Shown here one piece after another: positions 35,367 to 39,466 of a stretch of DNA of 50,826 nucleotides. Source of the DNA: Gemmatimonadota bacterium (GTDB lineage Bacteria > Gemmatimonadota > Gemmatimonadetes > Palauibacterales > Palauibacteraceae). A program made the position numbers and the translations under genes. The DNA lies in NCBI GenBank assembly GCA_022825725.1, contig JAJDWE010000025.1, positions 1 through 50,826 of the forward strand, written 5' to 3'. Every line of letters begins with the position of its first letter. Positions within the stretch are counted from its first letter, which is position 1. Below the pieces are notes generated by a model, which searched no databases, was not told the DNA's origin, and was given only the letters and a program-made list of their open reading frames with translations.

Positions 35367-35624
35367 ATGCTTCACAGGAGCGTTGCGGTGGCAAGCTACC
35401 GGTTGCAGGTGCTGATTCCAGGATCCCTTGAGAACCGCCTCCGGAAGGCGGCGAAGCGGGCGCAAACCTCGCAGGGCGCCTGGGTGCGCCGGGCGATAGA
35501 AGAGCGGCTCGATCGCGAGTCGGGAGGCGTGCCGCACGATCCACTCGCAGCAATGCAGGAACTAAACGCCCCCACCGCAGACATCGACGTGATGATCGCC
35601 GAGATCGAAGCCGGCCGATCGTGA
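35367..35624 (+). CDS. Antitoxin of a VapBC-type module (ribbon-helix-helix-like)
   Basis: The 85-residue protein begins with a strand and two helices (YRLQVLIPGSLENRLRKAAKRAQTSQGAWVRRAIEERLD, seen in overlapping parts) like CopG/ribbon-helix-helix antitoxins. It ends in a flexible acidic tail (DIDVMIAEIEAGRS) of the type that wraps the toxin. ATG 35367 has AGGAG six bases upstream. The stop overlaps the toxin start by four bases (GTGA), the usual coupling that keeps antitoxin in excess. It should neutralise the PIN toxin and repress the operon through the upstream palindrome. Confidence 0.85.
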   Translation: MLHRSVAVASYRLQVLIPGSLENRLRKAAKRAQTSQGAWVRRAIEERLDRESGGVPHDPLAAMQELNAPTADIDVMIAEIEAGRS

Positions 35625-36031
35625 AGGTCTTCGTGGACTCCAACATCCCGATGTACGTCGCGGGGGCAGACCACCCCCACCGGACCCCCTCCATCCAGTT
35701 CCTGAAGAACGCCGAGGCCGATGGACTCGAACTCTGCACGAGCACCGAGGTTCTGCAGGAGATTCTCTACCGCTTCTCCGGGATGGGCAGACGCGATGTG
35801 GGCGCCAGATTGTACGACTTGTTCGTCGCTCTCATGCCCGAGGTGTTCGATGTCACGCTGGCCGACACCGACCTGGCGAAGACGCTCCTTCTTTCCCACG
35901 AGGGGATATCGGCGCGGGACGCGGTACACGCGGGGGTCATGATCAATCGTGACGTCCAGATCATGGCGACCTTCGACCGCGGATTCGACGACCTAGACGG
36001 GATCACGCGGCTCGAGCCCGGACGCTTCTGA
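35621..36031 (+). CDS. vapC: PIN-domain ribonuclease toxin, VapC family
   Basis: The 136-residue protein starts at GTG 35621. It carries the PIN acidic residues in order: Asp6 in VFVDSNIPMY, Glu in STEVLQEILYRF, Asp in GISARDAVHAGVM, and Asp in IMATFDRGFDDL. These coordinate the metal for single-strand RNA cleavage; VapC toxins cut initiator tRNA or other stable RNAs. All key residues are present and the length is normal, so the module looks intact. The upstream antitoxin gene is translationally coupled. Confidence 0.9.
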   Translation: MKVFVDSNIPMYVAGADHPHRTPSIQFLKNAEADGLELCTSTEVLQEILYRFSGMGRRDVGARLYDLFVALMPEVFDVTLADTDLAKTLLLSHEGISARDAVHAGVMINRDVQIMATFDRGFDDLDGITRLEPGRF

Positions 36032-36086
36032 CAAACCGCTGAATCCGACCGCACCGTGCAAGTTTCCGCTGGCGTCCGCATGATCA

Positions 36087-36112
36087 TATCCATATATTAG
36101 GATTTATGGATA
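36087..36112. promoter_or_regulatory. Perfect inverted repeat overlapping the start codon of the ArsR/methyltransferase regulator
   Basis: TATCCATA (36087-36094) and TATGGATA (36105-36112) are exact reverse complements separated by 10 AT-rich bases. The right arm contains the ATG of the regulator (36106). ArsR-family repressors bind AT-rich inverted repeats of about this size near their own starts. The position predicts direct autoregulation that would also control ahcY downstream. Confidence 0.65.
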
Positions 36113-37083
36113 CGATTACCCTTCGGACACCCGCCCCGACGCGGGATCTTCTCTCCCGCTTCGAATCCCTCGGGGATGAGAACCGGCTGCGGATTCTCAC
36201 GCTTCTGGACCGGAACGAGTTCACGGTCTCGGAGTTGGTCTCGGTCCTGCAGCTCCCGCAGTCCACCGTCTCGCGCCACCTGCGGGTGCTCGCGGACGAC
36301 GGCTGGGTGCGCCGACGGCAGGAGGGGAAGACCCGGTACTACCGGATGGAAAGCGACCTCGAGCCGGAAGCGCGGGAGCTGTGGCGGCTGGCGGAGGGGA
36401 GTCTCACGGGCGCCCGCTGGATCGCGGACGACGCGGAGCGGGCCGAGAGCGTGCTCGCCGAGCGCCGGGATCGGGCCGCGGCCTTCTTCTCGGAGTCCGC
36501 CGCGGAATGGGACACCCTCCGGGATACGTTGTTCGGGCGCGACGCGCGTTTCGCGGTGCTGTTCGGCCTGCTCGATCGGGAGTGGGTCGTCGGGGACCTC
36601 GGCGCGGGCACGGGAACGCTCGCGAACATGGTCGCCCCCTTCGTGAAGCGGGTCATCGCGGTCGACCGTTCACCGGAAATGCTCGAAGCGGCAGCCGTCC
36701 GGCTGGGCGACTGCGGCAACGTCGATGTCCGCGAGGGGGAACTGGAATCGCTGCCCGTCGACGACGGGGAACTCGACCTCGCCGTGCTGATGCTCGTCCT
36801 CCACTTCGCGGTGGACCCCGGACGGGTGCTCGCAGAGGCCACGCGAGCGCTGGCCCCGGACGGAAGACTCATCGTTCTCGACATGCGCGCGCACGCGCGA
36901 GAGGAGTATCGCGAGACCATGGGCCACCTGTGGCCCGGATTCACGGAGGAACAGATGCGGGACTGGACGGGTCTCGCCGGCCTCGAAGCGTACCGTCACA
37001 TTCCGCTCGCTCCGGATCCCGAGGCGTCGGGACCGGCCCTCTTCGCGGCCACCGCCCGGAAAGCTGCCTGCAACGCTGGCTAG
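36106..37083 (+). CDS. ArsR-family regulator fused to a SAM-methyltransferase-like domain (SahR-like)
   Basis: The 325-residue protein has an N-terminal winged helix (about 15-85: LGDENRLRILTLLDRNEFTV, then LQLPQSTVSRHLRVLADDGW) with no ArsR metal-binding cysteines. From about residue 155 comes a Rossmann domain with motif I DLGAGTG (164-170), the acidic VDRS (about 187), and LAVLMLVLHFAVDPGRVLAEA. It lies 39 bp before ahcY on the same strand. This layout matches SahR regulators as I recall them from Proteobacteria, which sense S-adenosylhomocysteine and control the methionine cycle; the ligand here is inference. Few Shine-Dalgarno bases precede ATG 36106, which lies within a candidate operator. 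A real methyltransferase role cannot be excluded. Confidence 0.87.
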   Translation: MDTITLRTPAPTRDLLSRFESLGDENRLRILTLLDRNEFTVSELVSVLQLPQSTVSRHLRVLADDGWVRRRQEGKTRYYRMESDLEPEARELWRLAEGSLTGARWIADDAERAESVLAERRDRAAAFFSESAAEWDTLRDTLFGRDARFAVLFGLLDREWVVGDLGAGTGTLANMVAPFVKRVIAVDRSPEMLEAAAVRLGDCGNVDVREGELESLPVDDGELDLAVLMLVLHFAVDPGRVLAEATRALAPDGRLIVLDMRAHAREEYRETMGHLWPGFTEEQMRDWTGLAGLEAYRHIPLAPDPEASGPALFAATARKAACNAG

Positions 37084-37122
37084 AACCCCTTAACGCCGAC
37101 TGAATACCGAAGGAGATAGACG

Positions 37123-38616
37123 ATGGAAGGCGCCGTACTTCACGACATGACCGAGACCGCCGCCGGCACCGCGGCCGCCAGCCGCCCCGCGTTCAAGGTG
37201 GCCGACCTGAGCCTGGCGGAGTGGGGCCGCAAGGAGATCCGCCTCGCCGAGCACGAGATGCCCGGGCTGATGTCCGTGCGCGCGGAATACCGCGACGCGC
37301 AGCCGCTCGCGGGCCGGAAGGTGATGGGCTCGCTGCACATGACCGTGCAGACGGCGGTCCTCATCGAAACGCTGGCCGATCTGGGTGCCGACGTGCGCTG
37401 GGTCTCCTGCAACATCTTCTCGACCCAGGATCACGCGGCCGCGGCGGTCGCCGTGGGCCCGGACGGCACGCCGGAGGACCCGCGCGGGATCCCGGTCTTC
37501 GCCTGGAAGGGGGAGACGCTCGAGGAGTACTGGTGGTGCACGGAGCAGGCGCTCCTGTGGCCGGACGGCTCGGGCCCGGACCTCATCGTCGACGATGGTG
37601 GCGACGCGACGCTTCTCCTCCACCGCGGTCTCGAGTTCGAGCGGGCGGGACGGATCCCGGCCTTCGATCCCGAGACGGAGCCGGAGGAGTGGGGCGTCAT
37701 CCTCGAGACGCTGCGCAGAATCGCGGCGAAGGACCCCGGACGCTGGGAACGCACGGCGCCCGCCATCCAGGGGGTGTCGGAGGAGACGACGACCGGCGTC
37801 CACCGCCTGTACGAGATGGCGTCGGAGGGGACGCTTCTCTTCCCCGCCATCAACGTGAACGACTCGGTGACGAAGTCGAAGTTCGACAACATCTACGGCT
37901 GCCGTCACTCGGTCATCGACGGGCTGAACCGCGCCTCGGATGTGATGATCTCGGGCAAGACCGCGGTGGTGTGCGGCTACGGCGAGGTCGGCAAGGGGTG
38001 CGCACAGGCGCTCAAGGGACAGGGCGCACACGTCGTCGTCACGGAGATCGACCCGATCTGCGCGCTCCAGGCCGCGATGGAGGGCTTCCAGGTGCGCACC
38101 CTCGAGGACGTCGTCGAGACGGCGGACATCTTCATCACGGCGACGGGCAACCGGGACGTGATCACCTTCGCGCACATGGCGCGCATGAAGGACAAGGCGA
38201 TCGTCGGGAACATCGGCCACTTCGACAACGAGATCGACATGGCCGGGCTCGCGAAGGGCGGCGTGACGCGCAACAACATCAAACCCCAATACGACGAGTT
38301 CGTGTTCGAGGACGGGCACTCCGTGCTCATCCTCTCCGAGGGGCGCCTGCTCAACCTCGGCAACGCGACGGGGCATCCGAGCTTCGTGATGAGCGCGAGC
38401 TTCACGAACCAGGTGCTCGCGCAGATCGAACTCGCACGGAACCACGAGGCCTACGAGCGCCAGGTCTACATGCTCCCGAAGCACCTCGACGAGAAGGTCG
38501 CGCGGCTGCACCTCGACCACCTCGGCGCACGCCTGACGGAGCTGACGGAGACCCAGGCCGACTACATCGGCGTCTCGAAGGACGGACCCTTCAAGCCGGA
38601 CCACTACCGTTACTAG
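37123..38616 (+). CDS. ahcY: Adenosylhomocysteinase (S-adenosylhomocysteine hydrolase)
   Basis: The enzyme reversibly splits S-adenosylhomocysteine into adenosine and homocysteine, removing the inhibitory product of SAM-dependent methylations. The 497-residue protein has the family sequence throughout: [66 protein letters not shown] (in parts), the NAD-binding loop [34 protein letters not shown], and the conserved C-terminus [11 protein letters not shown] 37123 has AAGGAGAT in front. It should form an NAD-containing tetramer in the cytoplasm. The SahR-like regulator directly upstream probably controls it; the 39-bp gap is too short for an SAH riboswitch. Confidence 0.97.
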
Positions 38617-38635
38617 CACGGAACGGAGCAGGAGA

Positions 38636-39466
38636 ATGTCCACAAGAGTGTCGACGACCGGTTTGCTTGGCTGCATCGCGTTGCTGGCGTTCGGAACCCC
38701 GGCGGGTCTTGCCGGCCAGGCGGACGAAGGCAATGCCGGAAACGGCGGTTTCTACCTGGGTCTGGCGTTTCCGCTCGGGCAGATGAGCGCGACGATGGAA
38801 AAATCGGTGGACAACACGGCGCCCAACACGCTGGTGCCGGAGCCCAGGCGCGGGCAGGTCTTCGAAGACGAGGTCTCCGGGGACTGCCTCTCCTACGGGG
38901 TCGGTGCGGTCGTCGGATACCGGCTGCCGTTCTCCGGTGGCGCCTATTTCCTGGATGCGGCCGCTGACGTGGCGAAGCACGGCGGCGACGTGGAGGCGCA
39001 GTTCGCGGGCGTGGGGGTGTCGCCGGAACGGAAGCAGCTCGGAGAGAGTTGGCCGGACCGGTGGACCCTCGGGAAGGAAACGAGCTACGGGATGACGCTG
39101 AGGCTCGGCGGCAGCCCGGGGGGCCTGCGAGCGCGGGGCATCAGCCTGCACGTCCTCGCCGGAGTCCGCTTCGCCGGCGCGCAGTTCACCAACTACTCCG
39201 ACGGTTGTTTCACGACCGACCCCTGCGATCCCTCGCAATTCGTGTCCGGTCAGGAGGACCGCGATATGGACTTCACGGTCTGGAAATCCGGGATCGGACT
39301 GGAAAAGACCTTGAGCGAGCGCGTCGCGTTCCGGATCGAGGCCAGCTATTCGATCTACGCCCGGGAAGAGTGGGTTACGGAGTTCGACGACGTGGTCGTC
39401 ACCGTCCGTTCGAGCATGAAGGCAAGCGAAGCGGGATTGACCGCAGGCTTGCTGCTGCGCCCCTGA
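38636..39466 (+). CDS. Outer-membrane beta-barrel-like protein of unknown function
   Basis: The 276-residue product has a Sec signal (TGLLGCIALLAFGTPAGLAGQ) and then alternating strands with barrel character (GGFYLGLAFPLGQM, YGVGAVVGYRLPF, YGMTLRLGG, ISLHVLAGVRFAGAQF, AFRIEASYSIYARE), ending in AGLTAGLLLRP. Two Cys in DGCFTTDPCDPS could form a loop disulphide. GGAG (38625-38628) supports ATG 38636. It begins 19 bp after ahcY and may be read with it, although no functional link is evident. I do not recognise a named family. Confidence 0.6.
   Translation: MSTRVSTTGLLGCIALLAFGTPAGLAGQADEGNAGNGGFYLGLAFPLGQMSATMEKSVDNTAPNTLVPEPRRGQVFEDEVSGDCLSYGVGAVVGYRLPFSGGAYFLDAAADVAKHGGDVEAQFAGVGVSPERKQLGESWPDRWTLGKETSYGMTLRLGGSPGGLRARGISLHVLAGVRFAGAQFTNYSDGCFTTDPCDPSQFVSGQEDRDMDFTVWKSGIGLEKTLSERVAFRIEASYSIYAREEWVTEFDDVVVTVRSSMKASEAGLTAGLLLRP

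What the first reader, a model, noticed from the sequence alone, without database searches (positions are those of the whole stretch)
36087..36112. Perfect 8-bp inverted repeat across the start codon of a SahR-like regulator
TATCCATA-N10-TATGGATA places one arm on the regulator's own ATG, in front of ahcY. Together with the metal-site-free ArsR/methyltransferase fusion it predicts that S-adenosylhomocysteine, or SAM, relieves or triggers repression of its own hydrolase. A repressor sitting on the start codon might also affect translation of a leader-poor mRNA.
Basis: partly seen in the sequence, partly recalled or inferred. Interest (0 to 1): 0.62.

Follow-up and report, generated by a model that had tools for sequence, protein, structure and literature searches.

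The report
Double SahR operator covering start codon
The repeat is part of the DNA switch of a repressor that probably senses S-adenosylhomocysteine and sits, in many bacteria of several phyla, right on the promoter and start codon of its own gene, in front of the enzyme that removes that compound; it extends a known regulator (SahR) to new phyla with an overlapping two-site layout.

Summary
The inverted repeat is real (36087-36112, exact). Its mere existence is not unusual: the window holds 44 perfect 8-bp inverted repeats, as many as chance gives. What is not chance is conservation. A 30-bp block around the ATG is nearly invariant in 13 same-genus loci whose upstream DNA has diverged. All 56 orthologous loci read carry a related site at the regulator's start, and 55 have ahcY directly downstream.

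A matrix built without this genus scores two positions highest in the whole window: centres 36095|96 and 36103|04. So the repeat is the outer half-sites of two overlapping operators staggered by 8 bp. The upstream one lies on the position of the -10 box, the downstream one on the start codon. The stagger recurs across Gemmatimonadota and several other phyla.

Best reading: a SahR-type (ArsR plus methyltransferase-fold) autorepressor of sahR-ahcY, derepressed by SAH. Binding, ligand and transcription start are untested. In this genome no site lies at metK, metF or metH; metH-metF carries a SAM-II riboswitch instead. Some relatives have the site at metF-metH. A new variant of a known kind, of moderate interest.

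The parts
36087..36112 (.).
   Evidence: Exact match; conserved in same genus; its axis 36099|100 scores -9.6 with the family matrix
36086..36105 (.). Operator O1 (upstream), ATCC-N8-GGAT = ATC-N10-GAT at 36088-36103, centre 36095|36096
   Evidence: Highest score of the window with a matrix trained without this genus (17.7); companion at -8 recurs in relatives
36094..36113 (.). Operator O2 (start-codon site), homologous to the main operator of relatives, centre 36103|36104; left half decayed (ATTA) in this genus
   Evidence: Second highest class score (15.4) and highest f6-type score (22.6) of the window; footprint in 56 loci; covariation in relatives
36087..36092 (+). TATCCA at the position of the -10-like hexamer of relatives (TATCCT/TAACCT/TATCTT); overlaps O1
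   Evidence: TTGAC 16-17 bp upstream of this position in 16 of 32 relatives and 16 of 37 other-phylum loci; no TTGAC in this genus. Inference
36093..36098 (+). TATATT, alternative -10-like hexamer that would place the start of transcription at the ATG (leaderless mRNA)
   Evidence: Read directly from sequence; invariant in 13 same-genus loci; no consensus sigma-70 promoter by scan. Inference
36106..37083 (+). SahR-type regulator: ArsR/SmtB-type HTH (about 18-85) and SAM-methyltransferase fold (about 160-265)
   Evidence: Pfam HTH_5 6e-13, Methyltransf_11 1e-20; NCBIfam; matches in 56 of 149 related genomes
37123..38616 (+). ahcY, S-adenosylhomocysteine hydrolase, same strand, 39 bp after sahR: probable operon
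   Evidence: TIGR00936 625 bits over cut-off 497.6; directly downstream in 55 of 56 ortholog loci

Best explanation
The repeat is the outer part of a double operator through which a SahR-type repressor controls its own gene and ahcY. Two copies of the family's site (ATCC-N8-GGAT type) overlap, 8 bp apart: O1 covers the -10 region, O2 covers the probable transcription start and the ATG. The dimeric HTH protein would bind there and exclude RNA polymerase. When SAH accumulates it would bind the methyltransferase-fold domain, release the DNA and raise AhcY, which removes SAH. Shown here: gene order, domains, conservation, the two-register motif, the same site at metF-metH in some relatives. Inferred: binding, repression, SAH as effector, promoter position, occupancy of both registers, a very short or absent 5' leader.
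For: Domains; SAM-pocket residues D164, G166, G168, G170 and D187 invariant in 15 diverse orthologs. sahR-ahcY order in 55 of 56 loci and in 63 of 76 loci from several phyla. Start-site footprint found without supervision. Exact ATCCG-N6-CGGAT in 51 of 80 loci of a separate scan against 0.2% in shuffles. Second sites found by pattern search fall upstream of metF-metH in g19/g44 genomes, as expected of a SahR regulon (PMC4239095). A matrix trained without this genus ranks the two registers first and second in 50.8 kb. Companion at -8 positive in 13/13 same-genus, 31/32 other Gemmatimonadota, 34/38 others, but at +8 in 0/13, 3/32 and 1/38. C90 is conserved in 91% although a -10 box would prefer A there. 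Named relatives: Leptospira sahR-ahcY-metH, Sinorhizobium sahR-metF.
Against: No binding, ligand or transcript data. Identity to the Sinorhizobium protein is only 33% and it falls in a separate clade; the experimentally studied Desulfovibrio SahR could not be fetched. In this genus O2 has lost its left half (4 of 12 complementary pairs). O1 shares its right half with the conserved inner GGAT of O2 and its left half with a possible -10 box, so the -8 companion could partly reflect promoter constraint. The non-Gemmatimonadota column counts were taken from loci selected on the core motif. Shuffles do not remove relatedness.
Confidence: 0.8

Rival explanations
1. Single operator with the reader's own symmetry: one dimer binds TATCCATA-N10-TATGGATA, a genus-specific re-centred site that arose when the left half of the ancestral operator decayed.
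For: Best complementarity of any axis in this genus (8.9 of 12 pairs). The sister f6 sites have TATGT and GAATA where this genus has TATCC and GGATA, so both arms changed on the stem branch.
Against: The axis scores -9.6 with the family matrix and lacks ATC-N10-GAT; no significant covariation at this axis in relatives. In L016 both arms are altered while the ATCC/GGAT elements stay.
Confidence: 0.15
2. RNA element: the repeat forms a hairpin in the mRNA that sequesters the start codon.
For: The strand folds into an 8-bp stem with the ATG in one arm (-18.1 kcal/mol for 60 nt, z -2.4).
Against: No Rfam match. The left arm lies at the -10 position, so it is probably not transcribed. The stem is not maintained in relatives, and the same motif occurs upstream of metF-metH beyond a riboswitch, in the opposite orientation.
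Confidence: 0.04
3. SamR-like regulator responding to SAM instead of SAH, with the same operator logic.
For: The SamR site is a 24-bp palindrome sharing ATC-N10-GAT (PMC4239095); the protein fold binds SAM as well as SAH in principle.
Against: SamR regulons lack ahcY and include metK and metB (PMC4239095); here the only target is ahcY, and metK lacks a site. In this genome the SAM-sensing role at metH-metF is taken by a SAM-II riboswitch.
Confidence: 0.1
4. Conservation reflects only promoter and N-terminal coding constraint; the inverted repeat is coincidental.
For: The block includes a -10-like hexamer and codons 1-4; invariant third bases in codons 2-3 are not significant by themselves.
Against: N-terminal residues differ between clades; C90 and the inner GGAT are conserved although a promoter does not need them; the same motif lies upstream of metF-metH.
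Confidence: 0.05

Closest known systems
SahR (Desulfovibrio, alpha- and gamma-proteobacteria; Leyn et al. 2014 PMC4239095; Novichkov et al. 2014 known here only through citations)
   Same: ArsR HTH plus methyltransferase-like domain; linked to ahcY, metF, metH; autoregulatory palindrome close to the start; ATC-N10-GAT consensus (gamma SahR and SamR)
   Different: Different phyla and a separate clade (33% identity to the Sinorhizobium protein); operator TTCATCCGGATATACGGATGAA instead of ACATAAAGATATCTTTATGT; a second overlapping site 8 bp upstream; regulon usually only sahR-ahcY
SamR of Xanthomonadales (PMC4239095)
   Same: Distant SahR homolog with a longer palindrome and the common ATC-N10-GAT core
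   Different: Its regulon lacks ahcY; here ahcY is the main target
MetJ met-box arrays (from general knowledge)
   Same: Methionine/SAM-cycle repressor using sites repeated with an 8-bp period
   Different: Unrelated fold (ribbon-helix-helix), different sequence; the analogy is in spacing only

Membership tests
SahR | N-terminal ArsR-type HTH | tested here: met
   HTH_5 6e-13, HTH_metalloreg over its cut-off
SahR | C-terminal SAM-methyltransferase-like effector domain with SAM/SAH-binding motif | tested here: met
   Methyltransf_11 1e-20; DLGxGxG and D187 invariant in 15 orthologs
SahR | Genomic link to SAM-cycle genes (ahcY, metF, metH) | tested here: met
   ahcY adjacent in 55 of 56 loci; metF-metH site in g19/g44
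SahR | Autoregulatory palindromic operator of about 20 bp, ATC-N10-GAT | tested here: met
   Motif at the regulator start in all 56 loci; ATC-N10-GAT at 36088-36103. Sequence only; binding not tested
SahR | Orthology to experimentally studied SahR | tested here: inconclusive
   33% to the Sinorhizobium and 31% to the Leptospira protein, separate clade; Desulfovibrio sequence not fetched
SahR | Repressor released from DNA by SAH | not testable with these tools
   Needs purified protein
SamR | Regulon of metK, metB, metH without ahcY | tested here: not met
   ahcY is the adjacent target; no site at metK, metF or metH in this genome
Metal-sensing ArsR/SmtB | Cys/His metal site in the HTH domain | tested here: not met
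   No Cys in residues 1-100 and no CxC at alpha3 (ELVSVLQL in the translation)
SAH riboswitch | Match to an Rfam covariance model | tested here: not met
   No Rfam match in 35600-38700 up to E 5

The most novel reading that the evidence does not exclude
A SahR branch spread over Gemmatimonadota, Acidobacteriota, Planctomycetota and Myxococcota uses two overlapping operators staggered by 8 bp. Two dimers, bound together or alternately, would lie across the -10 box, the transcription start and the start codon of a leaderless or nearly leaderless sahR-ahcY mRNA and give a steeper SAH response than the single site of Proteobacteria.
Probability: 0.35. Interest if true: 0.55.

Novelty: new variant of a known kind. 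Interest (0 to 1): 0.38.

Why it matters
It extends SAH-sensing transcriptional control, described in the papers available here only for Proteobacteria, to several phyla that are hard to grow, with a readable operator code (CATCCGGATATACGGATG) that can annotate SAM-cycle regulation in uncultured genomes. It shows an operator that shares bases with the promoter and the start codon, and a split of labour in this genus: a DNA-binding protein at ahcY (SAH side) and a SAM-II riboswitch at metH-metF (SAM side).

Tried and rejected
Rarity of the repeat as evidence: rejected, such repeats are as common as chance gives. Riboswitch or other RNA family at the locus: none. Sites upstream of metF and metK in 30 genomes: none except one at metK in G074. 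metH in this genus: no site, SAM-II riboswitch. Third-base invariance of codons 2-3 as evidence of DNA constraint: not significant, about 0.1 by chance. Consensus sigma-70 scan: nothing in this genome. A degenerate core pattern in seven same-genus genomes gave 1-6 hits each; those of this genome looked at lie inside long ORFs, two of them recognisable coding regions, and none is next to a methionine gene, so they were set aside.

Full report
OBSERVATION. TATCCATA-N10-TATGGATA lies exactly at 36087-36112 and nothing else in the window comes within three mismatches. The right arm covers the ATG (36106-36108) of a 325-codon ORF, the first start codon after the upstream in-frame stop. Perfect 8-bp inverted repeats with spacers up to 20 are common in this window (44 observed, 43-57 in order-1 Markov sequences), so the repeat alone proves nothing; the local chance in 70 bp is about 2%.

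THE GENES. The ORF is an ArsR-type HTH joined to a SAM-methyltransferase fold. The HTH part has no cysteine, so the usual metal sites are absent; the SAM motif DLGAGTG and Asp187 are kept in all 15 diverse orthologs aligned. 39 bp further on lies ahcY (TIGR00936 far above cut-off). No Rfam family matches the locus. The upstream neighbour in this genome is a PIN-domain gene, in other same-genus genomes other sequence, so only sahR-ahcY is the conserved unit.

CONSERVATION. Orthologs were found in about one third of 149 related genomes; I read 56 loci including this one. 55 have ahcY directly downstream on the same strand; the other is at a contig end. In the 13 closest loci a block from 36088 to about 36117 is nearly invariant (identity 0.94-0.97 per 18 bp) while DNA 20-70 bp upstream is at 0.33-0.48. 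An unsupervised motif search on the 43 loci of other lineages placed a site at the regulator start in each: CTTTCATCCGGATATACGGATG in most, TTTATATTCGAATTTATGAATA in family f6. A scan of named genomes gave 80 loci in Gemmatimonadota, Acidobacteriota, Planctomycetota, Latescibacterota, Myxococcota (Anaeromyxobacter) and a few bins labelled Actinomycetota or Cyanobacteriota; 51 of 80 hold an exact ATCCG-N6-CGGAT, against 0.2% of shuffled sequences.

WHERE THE OPERATOR IS. The upstream companion at -8 is positive in 13/13 same-genus loci, 31/32 other Gemmatimonadota and 34/38 further loci, while +8 is positive in 0, 3 and 1.

PROMOTER AND LEADER. In relatives TTGAC stands 16-17 bp upstream of the hexamer that aligns with 36087-36092 (16 of 32; 16 of 37 in other phyla). 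That hexamer (TATCCT, TAACCT, TATCTT) is only 13-17 nt before the ATG, which leaves a leader of about 12 nt or less. In this genus no TTGAC is present and TATATT at 36093-36098 is an alternative -10 that would make the mRNA leaderless. Both are inferences; no start was mapped, and the promoter scan finds no consensus sigma-70 site.

REGULON. In this genus GGATTTATGGATA occurs only at sahR (12 genomes; G009 has two sahR copies, both with it). No site precedes metF or metK or metH. The metH-metF operon of this genome instead has a SAM-II (SAM_alpha) riboswitch. In genera g19 and g44 a second operator lies upstream of metF-metH, in three of the four loci read next to a SAM-II riboswitch above threshold, so both kinds of control meet there. 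One genome (G074) has a candidate at metK.

COMPARISON WITH KNOWN SYSTEMS. SahR is an ArsR-type repressor of SAM-cycle genes in Proteobacteria, with a 20-bp palindrome and, shared by gamma SahR and SamR, ATC-N10-GAT (PMC4239095); SAH is its effector in Desulfovibrio and autoregulation is supported in Ensifer (PMC8877191). Named relatives show the same logic: Leptospira interrogans sahR-ahcY-metH, Sinorhizobium and Sphingomonas sahR-metF, with palindromes shortly before the start codon. The alpha-proteobacterial palindrome ACATAAAGATATCTTTATGT shares CATnnnGAT|ATnnnnATG with the Gemmatimonadota site. Identity is 31-33% and the tree separates the groups, so it works like SahR, and membership is likely but not settled by orthology.

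ALTERNATIVES. An RNA hairpin folds, but the left arm is probably not transcribed and the stem is not kept in relatives. A SamR-like SAM sensor is less likely because ahcY is the target.

Noticed in passing
L303 (G000:C59:178500-181500) 1067-1140 minus; same in L304-L308: The metH-metF operon of this genome and its genus carries a SAM-II (SAM_alpha, RF00521) riboswitch, described as alpha-proteobacterial, here in Gemmatimonadota.
   Followed up: partly
L068, L082, L087 (and L067 below threshold): SAM-II riboswitch and SahR-type operator in tandem upstream of metF-metH in g19/g44 Gemmatimonadota: combined DNA and RNA control.
   Followed up: partly
35367-36031: PIN-domain gene with a short upstream ORF (VapBC-like toxin-antitoxin pair) directly before sahR; several same-genus genomes have a tRNA-like end there instead.
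   Followed up: no
L009 and L035 (G009): Two sahR copies in one genome, one with an in-frame TAG, both with the start-codon site; may be strain mixture.
   Followed up: no
G006, G016, G013, G014 (same genus): Two same-genus genomes lack both ahcY and sahR, two have ahcY but no sahR.
   Followed up: no
L204-L206, L208, L210-L212, L214, L219 (Planctomycetota): A group of these regulators is not followed by ahcY and lacks the operator at its start; its targets are unknown.
   Followed up: no
L152 742-817 minus (this genome, metK locus), also L151, L153: Partial cobalamin riboswitch match near metK.
   Followed up: no
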